From: a virus
DNA length: 59,982 nt
Direction: 5' to 3' (one strand)
Virus record (IMG/VR): IMGVR_UViG_3300035698_017647
Coordinates: 1-59,982 of that record
Part shown: piece by piece, positions 2,840 through 57,640 of the stretch
How positions within the stretch are numbered: position 1 is the stretch's first letter
Layout: the number at the start of each line of letters is the position of its first letter
Notes under the pieces: generated by a model
The model's database searches: none
Told to the model about the DNA's origin: nothing
The model's input: the letters and a program-made list of their open reading frames with translations, nothing else
Made by a program: the position numbers and the translations under genes

Positions 2840-4291
2840 ATGACTAAACAAGTTGTCCAAACGGTCGACATAGAGCAAGGGTCTCGCTACGAAGATTCGT
2901 TAGACGAACTTGCTGCTCTCATCAAAGCCCGCGTTCCAATTATCTGGGTCGTTACCCACGAAGAAAGTAGATTTATTTTAGACTTTAAACAGCGTATCGC
3001 AAAGCCTCATCATCGTCAAATGTGGATATGGAGTTCTTACCAAGGACTCATCAGAATAAATAACAAGATGGGAATTGGAAAGGCTGAGGGTGAAGAAAAG
3101 GATACTCACGCCGCACAAAAAGCTTTGACTCGCATTGCTGAGATGCCTAAAACAAAAGGAGAAGAGAAGGGTATTTGTTATATCATGCGTGATATGCATA
3201 TCGTTCTCGAGGGTAAGATTGTTCGTCAAATGCGTGATATGTTTGAGCATCTAATTGGACATGGTAAAACTCTCATTATTGTTGCACCAATGATGGCACA
3301 TGGTGCTGGTGGTACATCAGCCGGTCTGCCTCCAACCATGGAAAAACAAATTTCTGTAGTTCATTATGAATTACCAAACTTTGAACGCATTAAAGCTCGC
3401 TCAGCTGATATTCTTACTCAGATGGGAACTGGTTTAAAACAGCCAGACAACAATATTGTTCTTTCTTATACTGACCATGAAATGACTACATTTGCTAAGG
3501 CATTACGCGGTCTGACCCTCCTAGAAGTAGACAATGCTGTAGCAACAAGCATGACTCACTTGAAAAAACTCCACGTAAAAAAGCTTATTAACGAGAAGAA
3601 ACAAATCATTGCACGTTCAGATATTCTAGAATTCGTTGACACAGATGTCAATTTAGAAGACGTCGGTGGATTAGACTTAGCTAAGGAATACCTACTTAAG
3701 TATACTAATGCACAGTCTGATGCAGCCAAGGAATTTGGGGTTGAGCCATTAAAAGGTGTTATTCTTACCGGAATTCCAGGAACAGGAAAATCTTTATTCT
3801 CCAAAGTAATTGGTAAGTTGTGGAATGAACCCCTACTTAGATTAGATATAGGTCGTGTAATGGGTAGTCTAGTAGGTCAGTCTGAAGGTAAGATGAGAGA
3901 GGTCATCCGCCTTGTTGAAGCTATAAGTCCTTGCGTTACCGGAGATACGGAAATTCTACTCGGGAATGGGAATACATACACAGCTAAGAGATTACATGAA
4001 TTACTGACGGGTAGTAATCCATGGGACGCTGAATCAATGTATGCTGTCACAGTTAATGAAGATGGAACTAGGGTGCCTACAAAAATCCATACAATAATCA
4101 GAAAAGATGGTAGTAACAAGCGCATGTTGAGGATTACGTTGGAAAACAATCGTTCAATTACTGTCACAGAGAACCATAAGTTTCTAGTAAAAGACACAGA
4201 TAATTACTTCGATGGTAAAGAATTTTTCAAGTGGGTGGAAGCAAAGGATCTTACAAAAGAAGATGACTTAGTGGAACTTGACAGTGTGTGA
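2840..4291 (+). CDS. Ycf46-like AAA ATPase, N-terminal half with N-intein
   Basis: 483 residues. Residues 1-364 are extein. The N-terminal region has the Ycf46-type opening (ALIKARVPIIWVVTHEESR, then WIWSSYQGLIRI), followed by an AAA module with Walker A GIPGTGKS at residues 311-318 and a pore-loop-like GSLVGQSEGKMR. The extein stops at AISP, immediately before Walker B. From Cys365 the protein is an N-intein (CVTGDTEILL; later TENH), and it ends with a TGA at 4289-4291. The rest of the ATPase is encoded from 4347. A ribosome site, AGAGGAGA, precedes the ATG. Ycf46 proteins are AAA ATPases of unknown function in cyanobacteria and algal plastids. Trans-splicing of the two halves is inferred from intact intein motifs. 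Confidence 0.9.
   Translation: MTKQVVQTVDIEQGSRYEDSLDELAALIKARVPIIWVVTHEESRFILDFKQRIAKPHHRQMWIWSSYQGLIRINNKMGIGKAEGEEKDTHAAQKALTRIAEMPKTKGEEKGICYIMRDMHIVLEGKIVRQMRDMFEHLIGHGKTLIIVAPMMAHGAGGTSAGLPPTMEKQISVVHYELPNFERIKARSADILTQMGTGLKQPDNNIVLSYTDHEMTTFAKALRGLTLLEVDNAVATSMTHLKKLHVKKLINEKKQIIARSDILEFVDTDVNLEDVGGLDLAKEYLLKYTNAQSDAAKEFGVEPLKGVILTGIPGTGKSLFSKVIGKLWNEPLLRLDIGRVMGSLVGQSEGKMREVIRLVEAISPCVTGDTEILLGNGNTYTAKRLHELLTGSNPWDAESMYAVTVNEDGTRVPTKIHTIIRKDGSNKRMLRITLENNRSITVTENHKFLVKDTDNYFDGKEFFKWVEAKDLTKEDDLVELDSV
3932..4288 (+). mobile_element. Split intein, N-terminal half
   Basis: 119 residues. It begins at Cys with CVTGDTEILL (intein block A), and block B is visible as RSITVTENHKFLV with its T-x-x-H. 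No endonuclease domain lies in frame; translation stops right after the splicing core. The matching C-intein is at 4347-4451. Confidence 0.88.
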
Positions 4292-4357
4292 ACACACGGA
4301 ATTACTCTTTGTAGATCTTGTCATCTAAAACATCATAGGAAGAAACATGAAGATTAA
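4292..4357 (+). pseudogene. Remnant of an HNH endonuclease between intein halves
   Basis: Directly after the TGA that ends the N-intein, the same frame continues for 21 codons and then meets TAA. It reads THGITLCRSCHLKHH and then RKKHED. LC-x-x-CH-x-x-HH is the typical C-terminal end of an HNH nuclease (final His region of HNH). The upstream catalytic part is missing. I interpret this as a fossil of the homing endonuclease that once sat between the N- and C-intein parts of a continuous intein. The C-intein ATG (4347) lies inside it in another frame. Confidence 0.65.
4337..4342 (+). promoter_or_regulatory. Ribosome binding site for the split-off C-intein gene
   Basis: AGGAAG lies four bases before the ATG at 4347. 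It supports independent translation of the C-intein plus C-extein polypeptide, rather than readthrough from the N-half, which is in a different frame. The site is made of bases from the HNH remnant. Confidence 0.55.
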
Positions 4358-4451
4358 AACAATAGAAGAAGTTCCTTCAGAGAAGTGGGTCTATGATCCA
4401 GTTTGTAGTAGACCAAATACGTACATTAGTAATGGACTAGTGAGTCACAAT
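4347..4451 (+). mobile_element. Split intein, C-terminal half
   Basis: 35 residues. Block F is visible as WVYDPVCS and block G as NGLVSHN followed by extein Cys at 4452-4454. The short length matches natural C-inteins. It pairs with the N-half at 3932-4288, only 58 bases away. Confidence 0.88.
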
Positions 4452-5144
4452 TGTGTCCTCTGGATGGATGAAGTTGAAAAAGCATTATCTGGTACAAAGA
4501 GTTCTAACCTTAGTGATGGTGGTACGATGAGCCGTGTGTTTGGTACGCTACTCCATGCTATGCAGGATAGAATGGAGGGTGTAACAATCATTGCTACTTC
4601 GAATGATATTTCAGCTCTGCCTCCTGAGTTCATTCGTAGATTTAACGATGTATTCTTTGTTGATTTACCAGGACCTGATGAGCGATGGGAAATCTTCGAT
4701 ATTCATCTTCGTAAACGTAAACGTAACATTAAAAATTTCACCAAGCATAAACAGACTTTGTTAAATGCATCCGTGGATTATACAGGAGCTGAAATTGAGA
4801 AAGCTATTAAGCATGCCATCGCTGCTGCATTCCATGCTGGACATAAAGATGTAAATGGTAAAGACCTTCTTGCCGCCTTGGAAAATACCAAACCAATCTC
4901 TATAACAATGAAGGATCAAATCAAGAAGATTAAGGATAAGGCACGAGGCCGATTCCTCTATGCAAGTAGTTGGGCAGAAGCAAATAGTACTAGTAGACAA
5001 GTCACCTCAAAAAGTGGTAAAAAGCTTGATGTAAATGAAGCTCTTGATGACTTGGATGAATTAGTTAAGACCAAGAAAGAAAAGAATAAGAATGAAATCG
5101 ATAGTCGAGATAATCGCTTTGATTCTATTCTTGACGAAGACTAA
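4347..5144 (+). CDS. Ycf46-like AAA ATPase, C-terminal half with C-intein
   Basis: 265 residues. Residues 1-35 are a C-intein ending NGLVSHN, followed by the +1 Cys. The extein resumes as CVLWMDEVEKAL, which is the Walker B motif (hhhhDE), then sensor-1 (TIIATSN) and the arginine-finger region PPEFIRRFND, as in AAA proteins. The C-terminal 60 residues are a charged, Lys/Glu/Asp-rich tail. Joined to the N-half it would give a continuous protein of about 594 residues in which the junction reads AISP then CVLWMDE. Both halves are needed for ATP hydrolysis, since Walker A is on one and Walker B on the other. The next genes are the DUF1257 and DUF2997-like partners. Confidence 0.9.
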   Translation: MKIKTIEEVPSEKWVYDPVCSRPNTYISNGLVSHNCVLWMDEVEKALSGTKSSNLSDGGTMSRVFGTLLHAMQDRMEGVTIIATSNDISALPPEFIRRFNDVFFVDLPGPDERWEIFDIHLRKRKRNIKNFTKHKQTLLNASVDYTGAEIEKAIKHAIAAAFHAGHKDVNGKDLLAALENTKPISITMKDQIKKIKDKARGRFLYASSWAEANSTSRQVTSKSGKKLDVNEALDDLDELVKTKKEKNKNEIDSRDNRFDSILDED

Positions 5145-5170
5145 TTAGTTAACAAAAACAAGGAGATAAG

Positions 5171-5569
5171 ATGAGTCATTGGACGACCTGCAAGACAAAC
5201 ATTAGAGAAAAAGATGCACTGAAGAAAGCTTTAGACCGACTGGAATTTAAGTATTCGACAGATAGTAATCAGTCTGTTACTCAGGCTGGTACAACATCTA
5301 AAACAGAAATTAAACTCGACCAAGCAGTTGGGTTTACCCGCGAGAAAGATGGTACGTTTGCCATGGTAGGTGATTTTTATTATTCTACCAACCCAAAGTT
5401 GAAACAATACTATTACAATAAAGACAAATTCTCTACTGACCTTCAGACTGCCTATGCAATCGAGGAAAGTATTCTTCGTCTCGAAGAACAGCAATTCTCA
5501 TGTATTGAAAACGAAGAAGGTGTAATCGGCAAAGACAATCTCATCCACATGACCTTTGAAAGATTATAA
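5171..5569 (+). CDS. DUF1257 (Ycf35-like) protein
   Basis: 132 residues. The start MSHWTTCKTNIREKDALKKA matches the strongly conserved opening of the DUF1257/Ycf35 family (MSHF-x-x-I-K-T-x-I), and the mid-part has the family's YxxNPKLKQYY-type stretch. Ycf35 is a plastid and cyanobacterial protein of unknown function that also occurs in other bacteria and phages. Here it sits just after the Ycf46-like ATPase and before a DUF2997-like gene. The ribosome site is AAGGAG. Function is unknown; partnership with the ATPase is inferred from adjacency. Confidence 0.88.
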   Translation: MSHWTTCKTNIREKDALKKALDRLEFKYSTDSNQSVTQAGTTSKTEIKLDQAVGFTREKDGTFAMVGDFYYSTNPKLKQYYYNKDKFSTDLQTAYAIEESILRLEEQQFSCIENEEGVIGKDNLIHMTFERL

Positions 5570-5763
5570 TGAAACTGAAAAAAAGGATACGTAAGCTAAT
5601 AGAAGTTTTGGATCAAAAACATGAAGTCGAGCCTGAAAGCTGTGTTGTCAATGCACTGTTCGATTCTCTTCGCTGGAAATCAGATGATGAAATCAGTGAC
5701 CTATGGGACTGTTTAGACCCAGACGTAAAACTAGTTCTTAAAACTCTCACAAGTAAGGAGTAA
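5569..5763 (+). CDS. Small hypothetical protein in the Ycf46/DUF1257 module
   Basis: 64 residues, overlapping the DUF1257 stop by one base (TAATG). The N-terminus is basic (KLKKRIRKL) and the rest acidic and helical, with two Trp. I do not recognise it. Its tight coupling between DUF1257 and the DUF2997-like gene suggests it belongs to the same functional unit. Confidence 0.8.
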   Translation: MKLKKRIRKLIEVLDQKHEVEPESCVVNALFDSLRWKSDDEISDLWDCLDPDVKLVLKTLTSKE

Positions 5764-5765
5764 TC

Positions 5766-5951
5766 ATGGCACTTGTATATGTAACAATCGACCCAAAGAC
5801 AAGTATTCGTAAGTATGAAATCGAAGGCATCGGTGGTGTTGCCTGTGATGAGATCACAGAGAAGCTCATTGAATCCAATGAACAGCTTGACCATCAGTAC
5901 ACCGAAGAGCATGATGAACCACAAGAGCTTCCTGACTATGCTGAAGATTGA
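5766..5951 (+). CDS. DUF2997-like small protein
   Basis: 61 residues. The pattern of a short beta-rich start (VYVTIDPKTSIRKYEIEG), a GIGGVACDEITEKLIE segment with a single conserved Cys, and an acidic Pro-containing C-terminus (ELPDYAED) resembles DUF2997, whose members carry a GFxGxxCxxxT motif and often neighbour DUF1257 genes. It follows AAGGAGTAATC, a strong ribosome site. The assignment rests on the motif and its neighbours. Confidence 0.75.
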   Translation: MALVYVTIDPKTSIRKYEIEGIGGVACDEITEKLIESNEQLDHQYTEEHDEPQELPDYAED

Positions 5952-8494: not shown

Positions 8495-11400
8495 GTGGCA
8501 CCCTTTCATTTATCGGATAGTTTTATTGAAAACTATAAAAAACAAACTCCTGACTTTGGACCAATTGGATTTATAACATACAAAACCAAGTATGCTAGAC
8601 CTATTGAGGGAGAGAATCGTACAGAAGAATGGTGGGAGACTGTACAACGTGTTGTAGAAGGAACGTATAACATTCAGAAAGAGCATTGTGAAAAGCTCCG
8701 TCTCTATTGGAATGGAAGAAAGGCTCAGCACTCTGCACAAGAGATGTATGAGCTAATTTTTTCTTTCAAGTTCCTTCCTCCAGGACGAGGGTTGTGGATG
8801 ATGGGCACCGAGTGTGTTGCTAAGCGTGGTTCTGCTGCCTTGAATAATTGCGCATTTATATCTACTAAAAACATACACTTAGACTTCGCTGACCCCTTTT
8901 GTTTCCTTATGGATATGTCCATGCTGGGAGTAGGTGTTGGAGGAGACACCAAGGGTGCAACAAAGATGAAGGTAAAGGAACCCAGACAGGGTGACTATAC
9001 CTTTGTAGTAGATGACAGTCGAGAAGGTTGGGTAGAATTAACAAGAACATTCATAGATGCTTTCACTGGTAAGGGTTCTATTCCTAAAGAGGTAGACTAC
9101 AATAGAGTAAGACCCGAAGGTGCTCTGCTGAAAACCTTTGGTGGAGTAGCGTCAGGTCCCGGTCCTCTCATCCAACTAATGACAGACATTCAGGAGATTC
9201 TCGAACCACTAGTTGGTGAAGATATTACTAGTACAGCTATTGTTGATTTATTTAATGCTATCGCACGGTGTGTGGTGTCGGGGAATGTCCGCCGCTCTGC
9301 TACTATTATGCTAGGACAGTATGACGACACGAAGTTCCTAGACCTGAAGGATGCAACTAAGAGTAAGCGCCATGAGTTCCTGTGTAGTCAGGAAGGATGG
9401 CGATGGGCATCTAATAATTCCATCTTTGCTAAGATTGGGATGGACTACAATGGTCCGTCTGCACGTACCAAGAAAACAGGTGAAATAGGCTACTTCTGGT
9501 TAGACACAGCTCGAACCAGAGGACGAATGGCTGACCCACCCAACGAACTAGACATGTTAGTAGAGGGATGTAACCCTTGTGTTACTGCAGATACATGGAT
9601 TCATACACCTTATGGTCCTAGACAGGTAAAAGAATTAGTTGGACAAGAATTCTACGCCCAATGCGATGGACAGATTGAATACGCCAACAAGGGATTCTTT
9701 AAAACCAAGGAGAATACACAAGTCTTTAAGCTTCATACCAAGCAAGGCTATTCTGTTAGACTAACAGAAGATCACGAAATAAAAGTACAGAGCCGTGTAG
9801 GTCCATACACTGGGGACGGCTGGATTAAAGCTAAAGATTTGGTGGCTGGACGTGACTACATATACTTATCTGAATGTTGTCTTTCCGGTAGCTGGGAAGG
9901 TGAAGGAAAAAGAGGAGAAGGATATCTATTAGGACTCCTTACTGGAGACGGTACTATCAAAAAGAACAAGGCCGTATTATCTGTTTGGTCTAAAGGTAAT
10001 CCTGGCTACCAGGGAATCCTTGATGAAGTGCTAGAAGCGGTAAAGGATATGCCTGCTAGATCTGACTTCCAAGGATGGACTTCCATTCCGGATAGAGAAG
10101 AATATAGGCTTAGTTTAGTCCACATTGATGGGCTGTGTAACAAATACGATCTTGGAAGAGACAAACAGATCTCTCCTAAAATAGAAAGGGCGTCTCGTCA
10201 GTTCTATCAAGGATTTCTCTGTGGCTTCTTTGATGCAGACGGCTCTGTTCAAGGAACTCAGACTAAGGGTGTAAGTATCAGATTAGGTCAAGCTGACCTG
10301 TCTAGACTTGAAGCAGTACAGCGAATGCTCTTACGAATGAACATCGTTTCAACAATATATAAGAATAGAAAGGAGGCTGGAGAATCCCTTCTTCCAGACG
10401 GCAAAGGTGGACAAAAACTGTATCCAACTAAGGCTATGCATGAGCTAGTTATCTCAGGTGAAAGCATGACCACTTTCAATGAACTAGTTGGATTCGCAGA
10501 CACTCATAAACAAAATCTTCTAACAGAAAAGCTCGGTGCCTATAAACGTAAACTTAATAAAGACAAGTATTTTGCAGAGTTTACAGAGCTTGTTCCAGAT
10601 GGAACTGAAGATGTTTATGATGCTACAGTCGAAGAGATGCATTGTTTTGATGCTAACGGACTTATTGTCCATAACTGTAGTGAGCAGTCCCTCGAGTCAT
10701 ACGAGCTATGTTGTCTAGTAGAAACATTTCCGGCACGTCATGATAACTACAGTGACTATGAGCGAACCCTCAAATTTGCCTACCTTTACGCAAAAACTGT
10801 TACCCTACTGCCAACTCATAACGCCAGAACAAATGCTGTTATGCTACGGAATAGGAGAATCGGTACTAGTCAGTCTGGAATCGCCCAGTCGTTTCGAAGG
10901 CATGGTATTAGAGAACATTATTCCTGGTGCGATAGAGGTTACTCGTATCTTAGAAGCTTGGACCGTGTTTATTCTAGATGGCTATGTACTCCTGAATCCA
11001 ATAAAATCACGAGCGTCAAACCCTCTGGTACAGTATCGCTTCTCTGTGGAGCTACTCCTGGAGTTCATTTCCCCATCTCCGAGTACTACTGGAGAGTCCA
11101 ACGATTCCAATCTAATTCTCCCTTCGTCGAACCGCTTCGCAGAGCTGGATATCGAATAGAGAAGGCCGAAGGACACAACACTGTTTGTGTCTACTTCCCT
11201 GTGAAAGAGAGAGACTTCTTCCGTAGCAGTGAGGATGCCTCTATGTGGGAGAAATTAGAAATCACTGCCCAGATGCAGCACTGGTGGGCCGACAATCAAG
11301 TGTCTGTAACAATTACATTCAAACCAGAGGAGGCTGCGGACATTCCCCTAGCCTTACAGCTATATGAGACACGACTGAAGTCAGTAAGCTTCATGCCCCT

Positions 11401-11596
11401 GACAACCTTAGATGAATATAAGAAGATGGGATATGAACATCCTCCCTATCAATCAATGACTAAAAAGGAGTATGAGGCTGCTAAGAAGAAACTAAAGCCA
11501 ATCAAGATAAAAACAAACGCAACAGATGGTTTCAAGAAACTATTCTGTGACGGAGATACTTGCGAGCTTCCAAATATAGATGAACGAAAGGTATAA
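8495..11596 (+). CDS. nrdJ: Class II ribonucleotide reductase (NrdJ) with intein
   Basis: 1033 residues, of which 366 (residues 362-727) are an intein; the spliced enzyme is about 667 residues, close to monomeric adenosylcobalamin-dependent ribonucleoside-triphosphate reductases. Visible motifs: ALNNCAFISTKN (first redox cysteine region), ATIMLGQ, NP/CSEQSL (active-site loop carrying the radical cysteine), VKPSGTVSLLCGATPGVH, and a C-terminal CDGDTC pair for thiol exchange. It reduces ribonucleotides for phage DNA synthesis, using B12 and needing no small subunit; none is seen nearby. The start is GTG at 8495 with AAGGA upstream. The intein sits exactly between NP and the catalytic Cys. Confidence 0.93.
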   Translation: MAPFHLSDSFIENYKKQTPDFGPIGFITYKTKYARPIEGENRTEEWWETVQRVVEGTYNIQKEHCEKLRLYWNGRKAQHSAQEMYELIFSFKFLPPGRGLWMMGTECVAKRGSAALNNCAFISTKNIHLDFADPFCFLMDMSMLGVGVGGDTKGATKMKVKEPRQGDYTFVVDDSREGWVELTRTFIDAFTGKGSIPKEVDYNRVRPEGALLKTFGGVASGPGPLIQLMTDIQEILEPLVGEDITSTAIVDLFNAIARCVVSGNVRRSATIMLGQYDDTKFLDLKDATKSKRHEFLCSQEGWRWASNNSIFAKIGMDYNGPSARTKKTGEIGYFWLDTARTRGRMADPPNELDMLVEGCNPCVTADTWIHTPYGPRQVKELVGQEFYAQCDGQIEYANKGFFKTKENTQVFKLHTKQGYSVRLTEDHEIKVQSRVGPYTGDGWIKAKDLVAGRDYIYLSECCLSGSWEGEGKRGEGYLLGLLTGDGTIKKNKAVLSVWSKGNPGYQGILDEVLEAVKDMPARSDFQGWTSIPDREEYRLSLVHIDGLCNKYDLGRDKQISPKIERASRQFYQGFLCGFFDADGSVQGTQTKGVSIRLGQADLSRLEAVQRMLLRMNIVSTIYKNRKEAGESLLPDGKGGQKLYPTKAMHELVISGESMTTFNELVGFADTHKQNLLTEKLGAYKRKLNKDKYFAEFTELVPDGTEDVYDATVEEMHCFDANGLIVHNCSEQSLESYELCCLVETFPARHDNYSDYERTLKFAYLYAKTVTLLPTHNARTNAVMLRNRRIGTSQSGIAQSFRRHGIREHYSWCDRGYSYLRSLDRVYSRWLCTPESNKITSVKPSGTVSLLCGATPGVHFPISEYYWRVQRFQSNSPFVEPLRRAGYRIEKAEGHNTVCVYFPVKERDFFRSSEDASMWEKLEITAQMQHWWADNQVSVTITFKPEEAADIPLALQLYETRLKSVSFMPLTTLDEYKKMGYEHPPYQSMTKKEYEAAKKKLKPIKIKTNATDGFKKLFCDGDTCELPNIDERKV
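9578..10675 (+). mobile_element. LAGLIDADG intein in NrdJ
   Basis: 366 residues, from CVTADTWIHT (block A) to FDANGLIVHN (block G), followed by +1 Cys. Block B appears as VRLTEDHEI. Two LAGLIDADG-type motifs, YLLGLLTGDGTI and FLCGFFDADGS, mark a homing endonuclease that appears intact. The +1 nucleophile is the extein Cys that should carry the NrdJ thiyl radical, so an unspliced enzyme cannot work. Confidence 0.93.
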
Positions 11597-13503: not shown

Positions 13504-14182
13504 AAAAGAACACCCAAGCTTTGGGATGATAAAATTTAGCCGTATTCAAGGCAATCCAGGCAAAATGTTTGGTTCTGAACTACCACAACACGGTCACTTC
13601 ATTGAGCTGGCCATCTTACCAGGTAAACGATATCGTTCTTGCAACACTACAAACTATATGGGAGATCACAGACGAGGGTTAATTAGTGTATGGCTAAGTA
13701 CTGCCCAATTTGCTGATCTGATTACCAATATGAATGTTGGCGACGGAGTGCCATGTACTGTTAGTCGCTTCAACGGTGAACTAGTGGAGCGCGTCCCTTC
13801 TGACGAACAAACAAACGCTGAGAGAATTGAATCCGACTTCAAAGAAAAGGTGGGAAGTCTTATTCAATCTCTGACTGAGGAGTCTAACAAGGCACAAGAA
13901 CTTCTTCTCAAGAAGGGTGCCATGTCAATGAAAGCAAGAAGAGAAGTTGTTGAACATCTAGAACGAATCCACAGAGAAATTGGCAGCAATATTCCATTTG
14001 TTTTACGTTGTTTCCAAGAGGCAACAGAGAAGACATCTACACATGCCAAAGCAGAGCTTGATGCAATGATAACTCAGGCTATACAGAGTACTGGTCTCAA
14101 AGCTCTAGCAGAGGGTTCTTTCAACGAAGAGGATACAAAACGTTTACTACTTGCTCCAGAAGACAAAGGTTCTGATGAGTAA
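13493..14182 (+). CDS. Hypothetical protein with OB-like N-terminus and helical C-terminus
   Basis: 229 residues. The first 100 residues alternate strands and glycine turns (PSFGMIKFSRIQGNPG, HFIELAIL, GLISVWLS); the rest is helical with charged coiled-coil character (about 105-205). The position just upstream of the polymerase and the fold pattern would suit a nucleic-acid-binding accessory protein, but this is inference. It ends eight bases inside the polymerase start. Confidence 0.75.
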   Translation: MTFRKEHPSFGMIKFSRIQGNPGKMFGSELPQHGHFIELAILPGKRYRSCNTTNYMGDHRRGLISVWLSTAQFADLITNMNVGDGVPCTVSRFNGELVERVPSDEQTNAERIESDFKEKVGSLIQSLTEESNKAQELLLKKGAMSMKARREVVEHLERIHREIGSNIPFVLRCFQEATEKTSTHAKAELDAMITQAIQSTGLKALAEGSFNEEDTKRLLLAPEDKGSDE

Positions 14183-15149
14183 GAAAGATTTTGTTCATCT
14201 CCATGTCCACACCGAGTATTCATTACTAGATGGAATTAATAAGGTTGATAAGCTGTGCCAACACGTCAAGGACTCTGGTATGAAGGCATGTGCCATCACT
14301 GACCATGGTGTTATGGGTGGTATCGTTGAATTCTACAAGGCAGCTACCAAGGTAGGTATTAAACCTATTCTAGGTGTTGAAGCCTATGTTACATGGGATG
14401 AAGATGGTCTGGAGAATACAAATAAGACTAGAGATAATGCCCACCTCGTCATGCTTGCCCAGTCCGAACACGGACTCAATAACATTATTAGTCTCACCAA
14501 CAAGGCGTTTCTGAACAACTTCTATTATAAACCACGGGTATCGGTGAACAACCTAGGAGACCATAACACTAATGACATTATTGCTACTTCTGCTTGCTTG
14601 GGTGGGGTTATCTGTAAAGCTGGTATACGCGACGAAGAAACCAAGACGTTTAAAGATCCAGAAGGTATATGCCAAAGCAGATTAGAAATGTTTGCAAAGC
14701 TATTCCCAGGGAGGTTCTATGCAGAGGTGCAAGACTTTCCTAAATCATGGGCACAAGTAGCATACAATGAATGGCTCATTAAGGCTGCTCGAGAGATGAA
14801 TATTCCTCTAATCATTACGTGTGATGCTCACTTCCTGACCAAGGATGATTTTGAGACACATCGTCTCATTATGTCAAAGAATACTGGAAAGTTTCTCAAT
14901 GAATATGATGCCGACGATGATGGTCTGTTCTACTATCCTGAACACTGTATTCGTACGTCGGAAGACATGTATGAAGCAGCTTGCAAGATGGGTGTAGAAG
15001 AAGCATTCTCAAACACGAAAGAGATAGCCAAGCAGTGTAACGTAGAGCTTACACTGGGAGAGTATAAGTTCCCGCATTTTGACATCGCAGCGGAGAGCGA
15101 CTATCAGGAATTCCTTGAATGGCAAAAAAACAATACAAATATCCAATAA
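14175..15149 (+). CDS. dnaE: DNA polymerase III alpha, PHP-domain fragment
   Basis: 324 residues from the ATG at 14175. This is the N-terminal PHP domain of DnaE as a separate polypeptide. The metal-ligand signatures appear intact: HLHVHTEYS (HxH), AITDHGVMGG (DH), ILGVEAYV (E), DNAHLVML (H), TSACLGG and ITCDAHFL (DxH). In bacteria such intact PHP domains can have 3'-5' proofreading exonuclease activity. The frame stops soon after HFDIAAESDYQEFLEW, exactly where a normal DnaE would continue into the palm/thumb region. The next DnaE segment is encoded from 15388, after a small unrelated ORF. Noncovalent assembly with the other fragments is inferred. Confidence 0.9.
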   Translation: MSKKDFVHLHVHTEYSLLDGINKVDKLCQHVKDSGMKACAITDHGVMGGIVEFYKAATKVGIKPILGVEAYVTWDEDGLENTNKTRDNAHLVMLAQSEHGLNNIISLTNKAFLNNFYYKPRVSVNNLGDHNTNDIIATSACLGGVICKAGIRDEETKTFKDPEGICQSRLEMFAKLFPGRFYAEVQDFPKSWAQVAYNEWLIKAAREMNIPLIITCDAHFLTKDDFETHRLIMSKNTGKFLNEYDADDDGLFYYPEHCIRTSEDMYEAACKMGVEEAFSNTKEIAKQCNVELTLGEYKFPHFDIAAESDYQEFLEWQKNNTNIQ

Positions 15150-15391
15150 ACGTTCTTCTTGGAGAAGAAGACCTGGTTTTCTTAGACGGAAAACTTCTGA
15201 TTCCCTTCAAACATTATACGTATGAATCAGATCAATATGGCACAGCGTTGTTATTTAACCATACTTTTATTGAAGGTGATTACCTCCAAATTATTATTGG
15301 TGGAACATCTAGATTTATCTTTGAATTTCAAGACGGAAACTTTATTGATAAGTCAGGAGATAAACCAGGCGGACTAAAAGGACGAGTATGA
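15119..15391 (+). CDS. 90-residue protein lodged between DnaE fragments
   Basis: 90 residues. Its ATG overlaps the end of the PHP fragment by 31 bases, and its TGA overlaps the next ATG (ATGA at 15388-15391), so it is translationally coupled on both sides. It is beta-rich: EEDLVFLDGKLLIPFKHYTY then FIEGDYLQIIIGG. This recalls the small beta modules (hhhNGhhLxxGxDYxhxxxxhxF, GDxhxh) common in phage structural proteins. It could equally be a polymerase-bridging subunit. No homology to DnaE is seen. Confidence 0.75.
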   Translation: MAKKQYKYPINVLLGEEDLVFLDGKLLIPFKHYTYESDQYGTALLFNHTFIEGDYLQIIIGGTSRFIFEFQDGNFIDKSGDKPGGLKGRV

Positions 15392-15795
15392 ATCAACTCG
15401 ACAAATTCTTTGTATTCAAGTGCGAGAAAGGCCTCGAGAGTAGAGGCCTAGCAGGTAAGCCTGAGTATGAAGAGAGACTTAAATTTGAGATGGATACCAT
15501 CCTTCGAATGGGATTTCCATCCTATTTCCTTATCGTTCAGGACTTTATTAATTGGGCTAAGAGGAACAATATCTATGTAGGTGGTGGTCGAGGCTCAGCT
15601 GCTGGCTGTCTTGCTTCCTACTGTATGAACATTACGAATCTAGATCCAATCAAATGGAACCTATTGTTCGAGAGATTTCTCAATCCAGATAGAATGGGTA
15701 CTCCAGATATAACTACAACAGAATTATCAATCCAAGAATTTAGTAAAAAGATACTACCTTCTATTGACAGAGATATAGATATAGACTATTATTAA
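15388..15795 (+). CDS. dnaE: DNA polymerase III alpha, first palm fragment
   Basis: 135 residues continuing DnaE: YEERLKFEMDTILRMGFPSY, FLIVQDFINWAKRNN, then VGGGRGSAAG (family GPGRGSxxG) and LLFERFLNPDRMGTPD. A normal DnaE would go almost at once into PDxDxDF with two catalytic Asp. Here the frame instead continues about 30 residues and stops at TAA, three bases before a LAGLIDADG gene. The catalytic Asp pair is on the next fragment (16550-19081). Neither intein ends nor enough noncoding space for a group I ribozyme are visible at the break, so separate polypeptides are a serious possibility. Confidence 0.85.
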   Translation: MNQLDKFFVFKCEKGLESRGLAGKPEYEERLKFEMDTILRMGFPSYFLIVQDFINWAKRNNIYVGGGRGSAAGCLASYCMNITNLDPIKWNLLFERFLNPDRMGTPDITTTELSIQEFSKKILPSIDRDIDIDYY

Positions 15796-15798
15796 TAG

Positions 15799-16584
15799 AT
15801 GACAAAAGAAATATCTCAACTATACCTACAAGGAAAATCTGGACCAGAGATATCTAAATTGCTTAATATAAAAGTACATCAAGTATACTATCAATTAGAA
15901 TTAGCCAGTATTTCTCGTAGAACAAATAAAGAAAACTACCAAATAATACTAGCTAATTCCTTCAAAAATATAGAAACAGAAGTAGAAGCATATTTATTAG
16001 GAATTTTACTAACAGACGGTCAAGTCCAGCACAATAGACATTCATCTAAATTACTGCGTCTCGACCTTGTCGAAAAAGACAGGTTCCCCTTAGAACTATT
16101 GCAAGATTATCTTGGATTAAGAAATCGTATCAAAATATATAAACGTTCTAAACCAAATCAAGATGTAGCACGTATAGTTATTCCATCAGACATATTATGT
16201 AACAATCTTGCAAAGTTTGGAGTAGTGCCAAATAAAACTTTTGACACTACATTTCCAAACATTTGTAACAGTTTATATAAACATTTTATACGCGGCTGCT
16301 CAGATGGAGACGGTTGTTTTACTGGATATCATTGGAAACTAACTGGAACAGCTTCTTTATTAGTTAGTATACAAGAAGTTTTAATGAGAGAATTAGAATT
16401 CAATAAAACTAAGCTACAAACACGACATAAAGATAGAAACAATAATATTAGATCACTGGAATATGGTGGTCGAAAACAGTTGGCAAAATTATATCATTAT
16501 TTGTATGATGATACAAAAATATTTTTAAAAAGAAAAGAGTTGAAAGCATATGAGATCGCTGAAAGATATTTGTATACAAGATAG
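15799..16584 (+). CDS. LAGLIDADG homing endonuclease inside dnaE
   Basis: 261 residues. An N-terminal helix-turn-helix-like segment (QGKSGPEISKLLNIKVHQVY) precedes two LAGLIDADG motifs, YLLGILLTDGQV and FIRGCSDGDGCF, giving a two-motif single-chain nuclease. The gene is visibly more AT-rich than its neighbours, as expected for a recent mobile arrival. It lies between two DnaE fragments, and its end overlaps the start of the second by 35 bases. It presumably cuts intervening-less dnaE alleles. Whether it lies in a self-splicing intron or is a free-standing insertion is unresolved. Confidence 0.88.
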   Translation: MTKEISQLYLQGKSGPEISKLLNIKVHQVYYQLELASISRRTNKENYQIILANSFKNIETEVEAYLLGILLTDGQVQHNRHSSKLLRLDLVEKDRFPLELLQDYLGLRNRIKIYKRSKPNQDVARIVIPSDILCNNLAKFGVVPNKTFDTTFPNICNSLYKHFIRGCSDGDGCFTGYHWKLTGTASLLVSIQEVLMRELEFNKTKLQTRHKDRNNNIRSLEYGGRKQLAKLYHYLYDDTKIFLKRKELKAYEIAERYLYTR

Positions 16585-19081
16585 GAAGTCATTTCATACC
16601 TCGGCAACAGTCGAATGGAATGGTCTATCTGATACTCAGAAGAAATATATAATGTATTTAATGCGGTCCAAGAAAAAATATAACAACCCAAGTAATTCTC
16701 ATCTACTTTTTAGTCTAGGAATAACAGATCAGACACCACAAGGAAATGTAAAACGATCAGGTGGCGGTGGTTTGTGTGACATCGACGTGGACTTTGAGAA
16801 GAGGAAGCGTGATCTAGTTATAGACTATGTAGCAGAGAGGTATGGCGCCAATAAAGTAGCTCACATAGGTACATATGGAACCATGAAGGCCCGCTCTTCT
16901 ATTAAAGACGTATGCCGTACTCTCGGTGAACCCCTCATTATGGGGGAAAAGATTTGTAAGCTACTCCTAGCTCCTATCCATGGTAAAGACCAGACTCTTA
17001 CAGATTCTATTGAGAAGGTGGAAGCAATTGCCAAGATGTACAAGTCTGATACACCTGAAGGTACTGTACTGAGATGGGCTAAAAAAGTAGAAGGTCTCAA
17101 TAAAAGTATTGGTGTTCATGCTTGTGGCATTGTTATATCTCCTCATTCCTTGTTGAATACTGTCCCTATGTTCAAGGGCGGAAACAACAATAATAAGGTT
17201 ACCACCCAGCTCGAGATGAATAATATTGAGGACCTGGGGTTTGTTAAATTTGACTTCCTCGGAGTCGAAGCTCTCGATAAGATGCATGCCTGTGTAGACA
17301 TCATAAAGGAGATGCACGGGATAGACATAGACGTTGACAATATTGACCTTGAAGATGAGAAAGTTTTCTCCAATCTCCGTTCAGGAGACTCAGTAGGTAT
17401 CTTCCAGCTTGAAGCTAGTGCAGGAATGAAGGACCTTCTAGTCCAAATCCGCCCGACCTCTGTGGAAGACCTCGTAGCTCTTGTAGCAATTTATCGTCCT
17501 GGACCGCTTGGAAGTAGTTATAAACAAACCTATCTCGATGTTCGTGCAGGACTGCGTGAACCAGAGTATCTTGTACCTGAATTGGAACCTATTCTTAAAA
17601 GAACTGATGGATGGCTTATCTATCAAGAACAGGTTATGGAGATAGCTAAGACACTGGCTGGATACACTGGTGGTGAAGCTGATGAGCTTCGCAAGGCTAT
17701 GGGTAAGAAGAAAACCAAGCTCATGAAGAAGCATGAGCCCAAGTTTCTCAAGGGGTGGACTGACAGTAATTTATCTGAACAGACAGGAAAGCAGTTGTGG
17801 AAAGACATGTTAGCGTTTTCTGCGTATGCATTCAACCGCTCACATGCGGCAGCATATGCAATGATTACGTATCAGACAGCCTTTCTGAAGACACACTATC
17901 CCACAGAATATCTCTGTGCAGTCATGTTGTGCGTCGGTAAAGAAAACAAGGACCATTTAATCAAGTGTCTCACTGAATGCAAACGTCTTGGCATCCAAGT
18001 TCTCCCTCCAGACATTAATGAGAGCAAGGACTCCTTTGGTGTGACAGGAGAGAAGCAGATTAGATTTGGGTTAGCTCCTATCAAAAACATTGGCAAGGGA
18101 GCAGATACAGTACTCGAAGAGCGTAAGATTGGTGGAGTGTTTACAAGCCTGCGGAACTTCTGTGAGCGAGTAAACATGGGGACCATCAATCGACAGAAGT
18201 TGGAATCGTTCATTCAAGCCGGGTGTTTCGACCAGTTTGGCCAGAACCGGGCGACAGCATTGGGTGCGGTTGAACGAATCTGGCAATATAGAGAACAAAT
18301 GAAGAGATATGAAAGTAAAGTAGAGACGTATAAGAAAAAGAAGATAAAAGAAGAAGACAGATTGAAAGAGATAGAGCTTGGACTAACAAAGAAGAAACCT
18401 TTTAAGTCCTGGGCTCTACCAGAAGAACCTCAGTGGCCTGAAATTGTGGAAATGGATGAATTAATTGATGCCGATGTCCACAACATGGAACATGAGTTAC
18501 TGGGGTTCTTCGTCTCCTCACATCCTCTAGATAATATGACTGAAATACCAGATAGAATGCATTCGATTCAAGAGATGTTGGACATGACTAATGACCAACA
18601 AGTTTCTTTCGCTTGTGTAGTGACATCTCTCAAAGAGATCACTACTAAAACGAAGAAGGAGAAGATGGGGTTTGCGCTGGTGGAAGATCTTACTGGTAGC
18701 ATTGAAATAACTGTCTTCTCCAGGGTTTTTAAAAGAGTTAGTCATCTCTTGGAGGAGACACGACCCATCAAAATCAGCGGAAGTTTGGATGTAACTGAAG
18801 CTGATGAGGGTGATAGAACTACTAAGGTAAGAGTTAAAAACATCACTTTATTAGATCTTAATATTAAATGTAGTACACCGGAAAAATTAAGTGTATGCAT
18901 TGCTGCATCAAGAACCAAAGACCTCGTAGAACTTCTAGACAAACATGCAGGAGATCTTCATGAAGTGAAAGTAGCAGTAATGCTACAGGACGGTACCAAG
19001 ATTAGGTATCCGAGCGCGTTCATTGGAAACAATAAGGGTGTATTTATGAAAGAGGTTGCGAAATGGACAACGATAAACTAA
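16550..19081 (+). CDS. dnaE: DNA polymerase III alpha, catalytic fragment
   Basis: 843 residues if it starts at the ATG at 16550; its first residues overlap the endonuclease gene in another frame, and DnaE-like sequence begins after about residue 15. CDIDVDFEKRKRD carries two of the catalytic Asp, and VKFDFLGVEALDK the third. HIGTYGTM, HACGIVISPHS, IYRPGPLGS, YQEQVMEIAKTLAGY and NRSHAAAYAMITYQTAFLK are DnaE palm and fingers signatures. A helix-hairpin-helix region (FGLAPIKNIG) and an OB-fold near the C-terminus follow. It synthesises phage DNA with the two upstream fragments. Confidence 0.92.
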   Translation: MRSLKDICIQDRKSFHTSATVEWNGLSDTQKKYIMYLMRSKKKYNNPSNSHLLFSLGITDQTPQGNVKRSGGGGLCDIDVDFEKRKRDLVIDYVAERYGANKVAHIGTYGTMKARSSIKDVCRTLGEPLIMGEKICKLLLAPIHGKDQTLTDSIEKVEAIAKMYKSDTPEGTVLRWAKKVEGLNKSIGVHACGIVISPHSLLNTVPMFKGGNNNNKVTTQLEMNNIEDLGFVKFDFLGVEALDKMHACVDIIKEMHGIDIDVDNIDLEDEKVFSNLRSGDSVGIFQLEASAGMKDLLVQIRPTSVEDLVALVAIYRPGPLGSSYKQTYLDVRAGLREPEYLVPELEPILKRTDGWLIYQEQVMEIAKTLAGYTGGEADELRKAMGKKKTKLMKKHEPKFLKGWTDSNLSEQTGKQLWKDMLAFSAYAFNRSHAAAYAMITYQTAFLKTHYPTEYLCAVMLCVGKENKDHLIKCLTECKRLGIQVLPPDINESKDSFGVTGEKQIRFGLAPIKNIGKGADTVLEERKIGGVFTSLRNFCERVNMGTINRQKLESFIQAGCFDQFGQNRATALGAVERIWQYREQMKRYESKVETYKKKKIKEEDRLKEIELGLTKKKPFKSWALPEEPQWPEIVEMDELIDADVHNMEHELLGFFVSSHPLDNMTEIPDRMHSIQEMLDMTNDQQVSFACVVTSLKEITTKTKKEKMGFALVEDLTGSIEITVFSRVFKRVSHLLEETRPIKISGSLDVTEADEGDRTTKVRVKNITLLDLNIKCSTPEKLSVCIAASRTKDLVELLDKHAGDLHEVKVAVMLQDGTKIRYPSAFIGNNKGVFMKEVAKWTTIN

Positions 19082-28704: not shown

Positions 28705-30138
28705 TCAAATGGAGTTCTTGTTGTGATTCCCCGCATGCCATGCCTCTTCTTTCCAATCTAATGTAGAATAGAGCTTACCATCTAGTGTAATTCCTTCATG
28801 ATAAGTAATGGCTGGACAATTATGAGTAGAAATACTGTTAACAATATACGCCTCTTCTTGATCAACTGTTAAATTACAAATAAGACCACTGTAATCAATA
28901 CAATTAATTTCTTTAATAGGAAATAAGAGATAATTGTCTGCTATAAACCCTAATGAATAAGTGGGATTTTTTCTAAAAGAAACAATCCATTCTTGTTTAC
29001 AAGATACTTGTCTTCCTTGAATAAAGCTTTTTCTTTCAGGTCTTCCTTTTAATTTAGAAGGAATATGTCCTTGCCTAGCAAATAAAACAAACATCTGATG
29101 AGACAATGTTTCTGAAACAGTAGATATTCTTACATCTTGATTTGTCTCACTACCATCTCCACGTATATATCCAGTTAAAAGAGCAAGTTGTTGATCAACT
29201 GGAGCCTTCATAAAGTTTTCTCTCAAACATTTATTATAAGCTCGATCACCACCTACTATCCACTGTAATACTTCGATAAAGAATTTTTTAGATATAGTCA
29301 ACTCTGCTACACTGTCTCTTATTCTATAATGAGTAGCATATCCGTGAGCATTAGCGATTGCAGCCACTTCTTCTAAATAATGTAACTCTTCAAAAGCGTT
29401 AAATGCTAAAGAGACACTGTTTGTATGTTTATTATACCAACCTTCTGCGAGATACCAGCCACATATATACAAAAGATCGTTAGACCAAGGCATCTGTATC
29501 TGTTCATCTTTATTCCCCAAGTATAAAGCACTAAAATCTCCCACTTTTAATTTTGACGCAGGTATCCATTCTAACTGATCAATAATATCTTGTGAAGATA
29601 TATTGTCTCCTGCACACACAGGTCTTCTAGTTAATCTATCCTTATGGTAAGACATTGTTTTACATGCATAAGAAGTACAGAAGTGTTTCTTCTGTGACAT
29701 ATTACATTTAGGAGCATTCCAAACTAAGAATGGATGTTCACGTGTTGCGATAACAGGTCCACTATTTTCTAATGCAAAATGCAGCTCATATACTTTTTCA
29801 TTAATATCTCTCTGATGTACATCAGTTACTTTAACTGCATTATTAGTAGTAGGACCAACTACATAATCGCCAATTTGAATATCTTCTATGTTTCGATATC
29901 CGTCAGTTGTAAAAATTCTACTACCAGGTACTAAACATCCTGTATTACTAATATGATTATATACTCTCTCGCCATTGATGATAAAAAATGGAGTGATGTC
30001 ATACTTAGCTAGCCATTGAGGCGTAGTCTTACGATTAGTTGTATGGATAACAATTTGATTAATAGCCGACACTGAACGTTGTATATATTTCTTTGTTGGA
30101 TGCCTTACTAATTTATCAACAATATTAATAATTCTCAT
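28705..30138 (-). CDS. Endolysin (amidase_2) N-terminal part with intein
   Basis: 477 residues. The extein begins with INQIVIHTTNRKTTPQW (the amidase IxxHHT region) and resumes after the intein as CPAITYHEGITLDG, then AWHAGNHNKNSI, then TGA. Amidases continue with GI after NxxSI, so GGA to TGA is the simplest change. An intein of 373 residues sits at residues 68-440. The amidase cleaves the MurNAc-L-Ala bond of peptidoglycan at lysis. The start overlaps the previous stop (ATGA). Confidence 0.85.
   Translation of the reverse strand: MRIINIVDKLVRHPTKKYIQRSVSAINQIVIHTTNRKTTPQWLAKYDITPFFIINGERVYNHISNTGCLVPGSRIFTTDGYRNIEDIQIGDYVVGPTTNNAVKVTDVHQRDINEKVYELHFALENSGPVIATREHPFLVWNAPKCNMSQKKHFCTSYACKTMSYHKDRLTRRPVCAGDNISSQDIIDQLEWIPASKLKVGDFSALYLGNKDEQIQMPWSNDLLYICGWYLAEGWYNKHTNSVSLAFNAFEELHYLEEVAAIANAHGYATHYRIRDSVAELTISKKFFIEVLQWIVGGDRAYNKCLRENFMKAPVDQQLALLTGYIRGDGSETNQDVRISTVSETLSHQMFVLFARQGHIPSKLKGRPERKSFIQGRQVSCKQEWIVSFRKNPTYSLGFIADNYLLFPIKEINCIDYSGLICNLTVDQEEAYIVNSISTHNCPAITYHEGITLDGKLYSTLDWKEEAWHAGNHNKNSI
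28819..29937 (-). mobile_element. LAGLIDADG intein in endolysin
   Basis: 373 residues. It begins CLVPGSRIFTTDG (block A), has block B IATREHPFLV and ends NSISTHN before +1 Cys. Endonuclease motifs are YICGWYLAEGWYN and LLTGYIRGDGSE. The sequence is AT-rich. Motifs look intact, so splicing is expected even though the host gene carries a TGA downstream. Confidence 0.9.
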
Positions 30139-30752
30139 AATTTCTTTTCCTTTCGTTTCTGATACTGTTCCTTACGGTACTGTTTAGCTCGTTCGAGCTG
30201 TTCTTTGTGAGCATCTGATTTGAGATGTTCCTGTCGTTTCTGCTTCTGCAGCTCCCGCTGTTTATCTCTTGCCATCTCCTGGCATGTAGGAATTTCATTC
30301 TTGTCTGACTGATTTTCAAGTTGCCAAACAGTTAGTTCCTTCCTTGCTTCATCTAGTTTATCAAAAATCAGCTGTGCCGTCACATGTTTCTCTTCTTTGT
30401 AGGAGATAACGATATACATATATCCAGCAGCGAGCGCTGCTTCTTTCTTCTTTTCGTCTCTACGTCTACCCTCATGAAAAGCCTGGATAGCTTCTTCCAT
30501 TGGAGCACCAAACGTCTGTACTTTGTAATGTTGGATGCCGTGACATTCAATAACAATATTCAGCTTTGGAATTACCCAATCGAAACGATGCGAGCCATGC
30601 TCATATGACTGATTGACTCGGTTGACATGATACTCCTGGAACGTAACTAGATTGCAGAAGTTCTTGTTATTTCTGAGTAGATCACCAACAGCTCGGTGTA
30701 GACGAGAGGCATTCTTACGATAGGCCCACTTGAATCTACTATCTTTCGCCAT
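30135..30752 (-). CDS. Restriction-fold nuclease, possibly homing
   Basis: 205 residues. About residues 15-130 contain LHRAVGDLLR, SHRFDWVIPKLNIVIECHG, then QHY and EAALAAGYMYIVISYKEE. The D-W-V-I-P...hxIECHGxQHY pattern fits the PD-(D/E)XK/Vsr-like superfamily seen in phage homing and repair nucleases. The C-terminal 60 residues are a basic Lys/Gln/Glu helix. It adjoins the intein-bearing endolysin (ATGA overlap). A free-standing mobile nuclease is possible. Confidence 0.75.
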   Translation of the reverse strand: MAKDSRFKWAYRKNASRLHRAVGDLLRNNKNFCNLVTFQEYHVNRVNQSYEHGSHRFDWVIPKLNIVIECHGIQHYKVQTFGAPMEEAIQAFHEGRRRDEKKKEAALAAGYMYIVISYKEEKHVTAQLIFDKLDEARKELTVWQLENQSDKNEIPTCQEMARDKQRELQKQKRQEHLKSDAHKEQLERAKQYRKEQYQKRKEKKL

Positions 30753-57048: not shown

Positions 57049-57640
57049 GTTTATTCTCCAACTGTTGTTGTAATTTTTCAATTTTTTGTTTCAATTGTTT
57101 ATTTTCTGCAACAATTAAATGATGTTTTTGAGAATGTTCACCAACAGTGTAAATTTCAAGATTTTCTATACGATTATCATCTTTGATTCCATTAATATGA
57201 TGGACAATCTCATTAGATGTTAAAGGTCTATTTAACGACAGAGCTATAACCGCTCTATGCTCTAGAACTTCAGTTAAATTTTTACGTTTTTTAACACTAG
57301 AACTTCTCATCATAGGTTTTAGAAATTCTATTTCTTCTGTTGTAAATGAAGCTAGTCCTCTAATAATATATCCACCAGAAGTTTTGTGTCGCCCAGCAAC
57401 ACCTGTAGAATTACGTTTACCCAATTCTTGTTTGTGACATTCCCAACATATTTTTTTCTTCCCTTTTCTATACTCCCAAAGACCACACGAATTAACCTCT
57501 CGCCATCTATTACATTTTATACATGTAATTTTAATACGTCTTTGATAATTACGTTTTGCTGAAGGATTGGGTGCTGTATAATGAGAGTCCCAATCTATCT
57601 TTACACCTGATTCCAATATTTCTATCCCTGTGCGCTTCAT
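57041..57640 (-). CDS. HNH homing endonuclease
   Basis: 199 residues. N-terminal zinc-like pairs CIKC and CWEC (about 40-71) precede an HNH_3 core, EHRAVIALSLNRPLTSNEI then VHHINGIKDDNRIENLEIYT. A coiled-coil tail (about 175-199) follows. It is adjacent to and overlaps the intein-bearing GT gene, so it may be a free-standing homing gene invading the glycan cluster. No host-gene fragment is visible beside it. Confidence 0.88.
   Translation of the reverse strand: MKRTGIEILESGVKIDWDSHYTAPNPSAKRNYQRRIKITCIKCNRWREVNSCGLWEYRKGKKKICWECHKQELGKRNSTGVAGRHKTSGGYIIRGLASFTTEEIEFLKPMMRSSSVKKRKNLTEVLEHRAVIALSLNRPLTSNEIVHHINGIKDDNRIENLEIYTVGEHSQKHHLIVAENKQLKQKIEKLQQQLENKHE

What the first reader, a model, noticed from the sequence alone, without database searches (positions are those of the whole stretch)
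3932..4454. Split intein caught in the act: an HNH fossil lies between its halves
The Ycf46-like ATPase is encoded as two genes, 58 bases apart, whose ends are an N-intein and a C-intein. In the gap the N-intein frame continues past TGA as THGITLCRSCHLKHH, the C-terminal end of an HNH endonuclease, while the C-half begins at its own ATG with AGGAAG in another frame. A simple model is that a continuous HNH intein lost most of its endonuclease, a stop and a new ribosome site arose, and the protein became trans-spliced. Phage split inteins (gp41-1, NrdJ-1, IMPDH-1 types) are known from metagenomes, but a visible endonuclease relic between halves is an informative intermediate.
Basis: partly seen in the sequence, partly recalled or inferred. 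Interest (0 to 1): 0.85.

Follow-up and report, generated by a model that had tools for sequence, protein, structure and literature searches.

The report
Split intein with endonuclease gene remnant
A phage ATPase is made as two pieces that a split intein should join, and the short gap between the two genes still holds the last 21 codons of a DNA-cutting gene; a related phage has that gene intact at the same place, so this is a decayed form of a known arrangement rather than an intein splitting for the first time.

Summary
A phage AAA+ ATPase (phrog_8638) is encoded as two genes: 2840-4291 ends in an N-intein (Cys1 at 3932), and 4347-5144 begins with a C-intein (HN|C at 4452). Relatives with 57-69% identity have an empty site (EAMAP|CIxWIDEVEKAL), which fixes the insertion point. 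The gap frame 4292-4354 (THGITLCRSCHLKHHRKKHED) is the C-terminus of an HNH endonuclease: 32 bits against 14.8 for the next best of 57,664 peptides, and 0 of 20,000 shuffles reach it. A viral contig (L153/L180) has a related split intein at the same site with an intact 293-aa free-standing HNH gene between the halves. Its stop overlaps the C-half start by 11 nt (ATGCAAATTAA); the window shows the same overlap (ATGAAGATTAA) in the same relative frame. The window is therefore most likely a "fractured gene" (Dassa et al. 2009) from which about 845 nt of HNH gene were deleted. The surviving 3' end carries the ribosome site of the C-half. Trans-splicing is inferred from intact catalytic residues, not shown. 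The arrangement is known; the decay state and its matched intact relative are the new part.

The parts
2840..3931 (+). N-extein of the AAA+ ATPase (364 aa, Walker A GIPGTGKS); ends ...VEAISP
   Evidence: Pfam AAA 1-60; phrog_8638 positions 8-367; relatives with empty site L001, L002, L008, L010-L012
3932..4288 (+). N-intein, 119 aa: Cys1 block A (CVTGDTEI), block B TxxH (TENH), ends KEDDLVELDSV
   Evidence: TIGR01445 54.2 bits; alignment to L153 and L015 inteins
4289..4291 (+). TGA stop of the N-half
   Evidence: sequence; TGA ends 17 of 56 long stop-to-stop frames in the window, so it is an ordinary stop here
4292..4357 (+). HNH endonuclease remnant: THGITLCRSCHLKHHRKKHED plus TAA stop (4355-4357); no start codon
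   Evidence: HNH-tail profile 32.3 bits, 0/20,000 shuffles; matches C-terminus of the L153 HNH protein, 0/3000 shuffles
4337..4342 (+). AGGAAG, ribosome-binding-like site of the C-half, lying inside the HNH remnant
   Evidence: sequence, compared with other starts in the window; function inferred
4347..4357 (+). 11-nt overlap ATGAAGATTAA: C-half start codon to the stop of the HNH remnant
   Evidence: same 11-nt overlap (ATGCAAATTAA) in L153
4347..4451 (+). C-intein, 35 aa: block F VYDPVC, block G NGLVSHN
   Evidence: TIGR01443 15.8 bits, above cut-off 15.6; 21 of 36 identical to the L153 C-intein
4452..5144 (+). C-extein (230 aa plus stop): Cys+1, Walker B VLWMDE, lid
   Evidence: Pfam AAA 56-130; phrog_8638 positions 365-555

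Best explanation
The ATPase gene was interrupted at its Walker B motif by an intein, and a free-standing HNH homing endonuclease gene sat between the two intein halves (a fractured gene). The HNH gene ended by overlapping the C-half start codon, and its 3' end held the C-half ribosome site. In this phage a deletion of roughly 845 nt then removed the HNH gene except its last 21 codons, leaving the two halves 55 nt apart. The two polypeptides should associate through the intein halves and be ligated by protein trans-splicing to a 594-aa ATPase. Shown by sequence: the intein halves, the empty site in relatives, the HNH remnant, the intact counterpart. Inferred: the deletion event, its size, and the splicing.
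For: Empty site in L001, L002, L008, L010-L012. Intein models above cut-offs; catalytic residues Cys1, TxxH, His-Asn, Cys+1 present. HNH tail significant. L153/L180: related split intein at the same site with intact HNH gene (phrog_1271, E 1e-22), N-half stop at 1763-1765, HNH 1795-2676, C-half from 2666, gap 900 nt against 55 nt in the window, same 11-nt overlap and same relative frame. Window, L153 and L015 inteins form one group, support 96/89. Relic matches the L153 HNH C-terminus, score 55 against a shuffle maximum of 46 in 3000. Unrelated phages (S16, PM2 uvsW; MIJ3 polB) show the same gene order with other endonucleases.
Against: L153 is a distant relative (N-half 30% identity), so homology of the two HNH genes rests on a 17-residue match plus shared geometry; at DNA level the match is not significant. 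The shared stop is partly forced, because the conserved Ile-Lys of the C-intein (ATTAAA) gives TAA in that frame. In the tree the continuous mini-intein L015 falls with L153 (90/87), so one fracture is not proven. No reads and no splicing assay.
Confidence: 0.83

Rival explanations
1. One reading: a continuous intein with an in-frame HNH domain lost most of the domain, and a stop, a frameshift and a new start then split it.
For: Continuous inteins with an in-frame HNH of this kind exist in other genes, for example L171 (NNGITVCVKCHNKIH...VYDLTV...HN|C) and L142. Relic and N-intein share a frame.
Against: None found at this site. The remnant has its own stop 6 residues after the last His, as in free-standing HNH genes, and the same overlap with the C-half start as the intact split locus L153.
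Confidence: 0.1
2. Independent fracture: the window and L153 were invaded separately by related HNH genes at the same intein position, and the window copy later decayed.
For: L015, continuous, groups with L153 (90/87) rather than outside both; endonucleases insert at one preferred intein position.
Against: Same relative frame and same 11-nt overlap in both. Needs an extra invasion, unless L015 is a re-fused form.
Confidence: 0.3
3. Assembly artefact: the real gene is continuous, or carries the whole HNH gene, and the contig is collapsed.
For: The window is an IMG/VR metagenome record; no reads were available.
Against: Stop, ribosome site and start codon agree with an independent natural split locus. 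A continuous gene cannot be regained by one base change, since about 845 nt are missing relative to L153.
Confidence: 0.04
4. The two halves are not joined: the ATPase is dead or works as two associated fragments.
For: No splicing assay; the window DnaE is also in pieces without intein blocks.
Against: All splicing residues and ATPase motifs are intact; both intein halves pass the curated cut-offs.
Confidence: 0.1

Closest known systems
Fractured genes with split inteins (Dassa et al. 2009, Nucleic Acids Res 37:2560; paper not held, title seen in reference lists, content from memory)
   Same: A conserved phage gene broken by a split intein, with a free-standing endonuclease gene between the halves
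   Different: Here only 21 codons of the endonuclease remain; the gene is a Ycf46-like AAA+ ATPase; the nuclease is HNH
L153/L180 (IMGVR_UViG_3300035698_031273), same ATPase site
   Same: Related N- and C-intein, HNH gene between them, same overlap with the C-half start
   Different: HNH gene intact (293 aa), gap 900 nt; proteins distant (30% identity in the N-half)
uvsW split intein of Salmonella phage S16 and Proteus phage PM2
   Same: Split intein with an endonuclease gene overlapping both halves
   Different: Endonuclease is NUMOD3/TnsA-like by Pfam, intact; different host gene
polB split intein of Pseudomonas phage MIJ3 (PMC6892783)
   Same: Published split intein with a nuclease gene between the halves
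   Different: The paper calls it HNH; Pfam gave DUF723 and no HNH here; intact
gp41-1, NrdJ-1, IMPDH-1 split inteins
   Same: Phage-type split inteins with a long N-part and a C-part of about 35-40 residues
   Different: Other host genes; not compared by sequence here (lead from memory)

Membership tests
Split intein (class 1) | Block A nucleophile, block B TxxH, C-terminal His-Asn, +1 nucleophile | tested here: met
   Cys1 at 3932, TENH, SHN, Cys at 4452; TIGR01445 and TIGR01443 above cut-off
Split intein (class 1) | Halves on two separately translated genes, split at the endonuclease position between blocks B and F | tested here: met
   N-half ends after ...DDLVELDSV*, C-half starts MKIKTIEE; aligned to L015, L153, S16
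Split intein (class 1) | Insertion in a conserved gene with empty sites in relatives | tested here: met
   L001, L002, L008, L010-L012
Split intein (class 1) | Trans-splicing activity | not testable with these tools
   needs expression of both halves
Fractured gene | Conserved gene broken in two by a split intein | tested here: met
Fractured gene | Complete free-standing endonuclease gene between the halves | tested here: not met
   only 21 codons and a stop, no start codon; intact in L153. Filed as a derived, decayed form, not as a full member
HNH endonuclease | C-terminal Cys-x2-Cys-His-x3-His element | tested here: met
HNH endonuclease | Complete H-N-H motif | tested here: not met
   first His and Asn elements absent; no Pfam hit for the relic
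Continuous HNH intein | HNH in one frame with both intein halves | tested here: not met
   stop at 4289, C-half in another frame; no such intein found at this site

The most novel reading that the evidence does not exclude
One intein family at one ATPase site exists in four architectures: continuous with LAGLIDADG (L105), continuous mini (L015), split with free HNH (L153), split with HNH remnant (window). If the tree is right (L015 next to L153), the mini-intein may be a re-fused form, so splitting would be reversible until deletion leaves the halves in different frames. The same HNH family (phrog_1271) also sits out of frame inside continuous TerL inteins (L150, L165, L156 and others), which would give a route to splitting: an HNH gene nested out of frame in an intein, then a stop in the main frame, then endonuclease loss.
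Probability: 0.2. Interest if true: 0.7.

Novelty: new variant of a known kind. Interest (0 to 1): 0.5.

Why it matters
How natural split inteins arise, and why some have no endonuclease gene between the halves, is usually inferred from end states. Here one insertion site offers empty, continuous, split-with-nuclease and split-with-remnant forms, so the steps can be ordered and tested. It also explains why a remnant persists: the 3' end of the lost gene still supplies the ribosome site for the C-half. The window and L153 inteins are also candidates for trans-splicing tools.

Tried and rejected
Single-protein scans with the N-intein and the C-half found no relatives. tblastn of the 21-aa relic found nothing, and Pfam gave no family for it; a profile of independent HNH tails was needed. 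DNA-level alignment of the relic to the L153 HNH gene is not better than shuffles; only the peptide match is. A scan of the N-junction gave only L103, the same contig as L015. Of 80 prokaryote loci fetched, the motif check showed no intein at the site. No Rfam family explains the gap or the DnaE break. MIJ3 was expected to be an HNH precedent; Pfam did not support HNH there. Readthrough of TGA or another genetic code: rejected, because TGA is a common stop in the window and the frame closes 21 codons later. Structure prediction was not run: it would not separate the models.

Full report
Observation. The window is a 59,982-base virus record. An AAA+ ATPase is encoded by two genes, 2840-4291 and 4347-5144. 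The first ends in an N-intein that starts at Cys1 (3932), the second starts with a C-intein that ends in His-Asn before Cys at 4452. Curated models agree: TIGR01445 54.2 bits against a cut-off of 24.5, TIGR01443 15.8 against 15.6, and PF14890 46.4 against 35.8 when both halves are read together. The two exteins cover phrog_8638 positions 8-367 and 365-555 without a gap, so the joined protein has 594 residues. Relatives of 57-69% identity over the C-extein are uninterrupted (LEAMAP|CIGWIDEVEKALSG and similar), which shows where the intein was inserted: just before Walker B.

The gap. From the N-half TGA to the C-half ATG there are 55 nt. In the N-half frame they read THGITLCRSCHLKHHRKKHED*. To test the HNH claim without circularity, phage HNH genes were found with a query that lacks the tail; ten were read, and a 14-column profile was made from eight of their tails, leaving out one near-copy and one with an insertion. 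The gap peptide scores 32.3 bits; the next best of 57,664 stop-free 14-mers in all frames of the window scores 14.8; none of 20,000 shuffles of the gap comes near. In free-standing phage HNH genes the stop usually follows the last His within 5 to 20 residues or so, though some run longer; in the gap it follows after 6.

An intact counterpart. A pattern for an HNH tail followed by a C-intein, scanned over viral contigs, gave 32 loci, and the same pattern occurs once in the window and in no shuffle. One locus, L153 (IMGVR_UViG_3300035698_031273), is the same kind of ATPase with the intein at the same position (HN|CCLWVDEIEKGLSG). The upstream part was fetched (L180). It has an N-half ending in an N-intein (stop 1763-1765), an HNH gene of 293 aa (1795-2676; phrog_1271, E 1e-22) and a C-half. 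The HNH stop and the C-half start overlap as ATGCAAATTAA; the window has ATGAAGATTAA, 11 nt in both, with the HNH frame in the same position relative to the C-half. The relic peptide matches the end of the L153 HNH protein (HGITLCRSCHLKHHRKK against NGETLCRRCHFLKHIKK), a score that none of 3000 shuffles reaches; the DNA match is not significant.

Interpretation. The simplest reading is that the ancestor was already split, with a free-standing HNH gene between the halves, and that about 845 nt (900 minus 55) were deleted in the window lineage. The part that remains contains the AGGAAG ribosome-like site of the C-half, and in L153 the corresponding site (AAGGTGG) also lies in the HNH gene, which would explain why the end of the gene was spared. 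The upstream part of the relic (GITLCRSCH) has no such reason to persist, so the deletion may be recent; this is inference.

Family of the intein. A tree of 14 intein sequences puts window, L153 and L015 together (96/89), with the LAGLIDADG-bearing L105 next (82/91 for the four). L015 is a continuous mini-intein and L105 a continuous LAGLIDADG intein at the same ATPase site. So one intein family occupies this site in four architectures. Within it L015 joins L153 (90/87), which leaves open whether the fracture happened twice or L015 was re-fused. The sequences are short and the branches long, so this point is weak.

Context. The arrangement itself is known. Published phages have split inteins with an endonuclease gene between the halves: MIJ3 polB (PMC6892783), and S16 and PM2 uvsW show the same order in their records. 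The name 'fractured genes' and the idea that such loci link endonuclease invasion to split inteins come from Dassa et al. 2009, which is cited in papers read here but was not itself available; its content is from memory. Notably, by Pfam the MIJ3 nuclease is not HNH (DUF723) and those of S16 and PM2 are NUMOD3/TnsA-like, so HNH is the less usual partner among the cases seen here.

What is not shown. Splicing was not tested; reads were not available; L153 is distant (30% identity in the N-half). The scans covered viral contigs and one pass over genome contigs, not metagenome contigs.

Verdict. Real, correctly located, and partly misread in its history: a decayed fractured gene. New variant of a known kind; interest 0.5.

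Noticed in passing
L150 4126-6831 (frame 0) with 4745-5836 (frame 1); also L143/L149, L144, L146, L154/L163, L155, L156/L159/L167, L158, L162, L165 (gene-strand coordinates): Inteins (terminase large subunit by Pfam in L150 and L165; the C-extein start looks alike in the others) whose HNH gene is encoded in the +1 frame, overlapping the continuous main intein frame by 435-1092 nt; the main frame stays open through it. HNH confirmed by phrog_1271 (L150, L156, L165) or PF01844 (L162); intein by PF14890 in the three scanned (L150, L162, L165). The nearest published case found is the out-of-frame HNH of the ShiLan methylase insertion (PMC11855218), which is not recognised as an intein. This deserves its own study.
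   Followed up: partly
L015 1-3560 (IMGVR_UViG_3300031566_013562): A related ATPase carries two inteins: one at the P-loop, fractured after only 24 N-intein residues with a NUMOD3/TnsA-like gene in between, and a continuous mini-intein at Walker B.
   Followed up: partly
window 14178-19081 (+): DNA polymerase III alpha is in three pieces (PHP 14178-15149, 15388-15795, 16550-19081), with a small ORF at 15119-15391 and a LAGLIDADG gene at 15799-16584 in the breaks; no intein blocks and no Rfam intron found.
   Followed up: partly
window 8495-11596 (+), 28705-30171 (-), 54682-57090 (-), 58796-59980 (-): Four more intein-bearing genes in the same phage: ribonucleotide reductase with a LAGLIDADG intein (Pfam), and, judged by reading the motifs, an amidase-like protein, a glycosyltransferase and an actin-like protein cut by the window end.
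   Followed up: partly
L107 31271-32953 (MIJ3 MIJ3_00154): Annotated and published as an HNH homing endonuclease, but Pfam shows DUF723 and no HNH domain.
   Followed up: partly
L105 140-3109 (reverse strand; IMGVR_UViG_3300028654_000001): A long continuous intein with DGDGFIG/DADGCIG (LAGLIDADG-like) motifs at the same ATPase Walker B site.
   Followed up: partly
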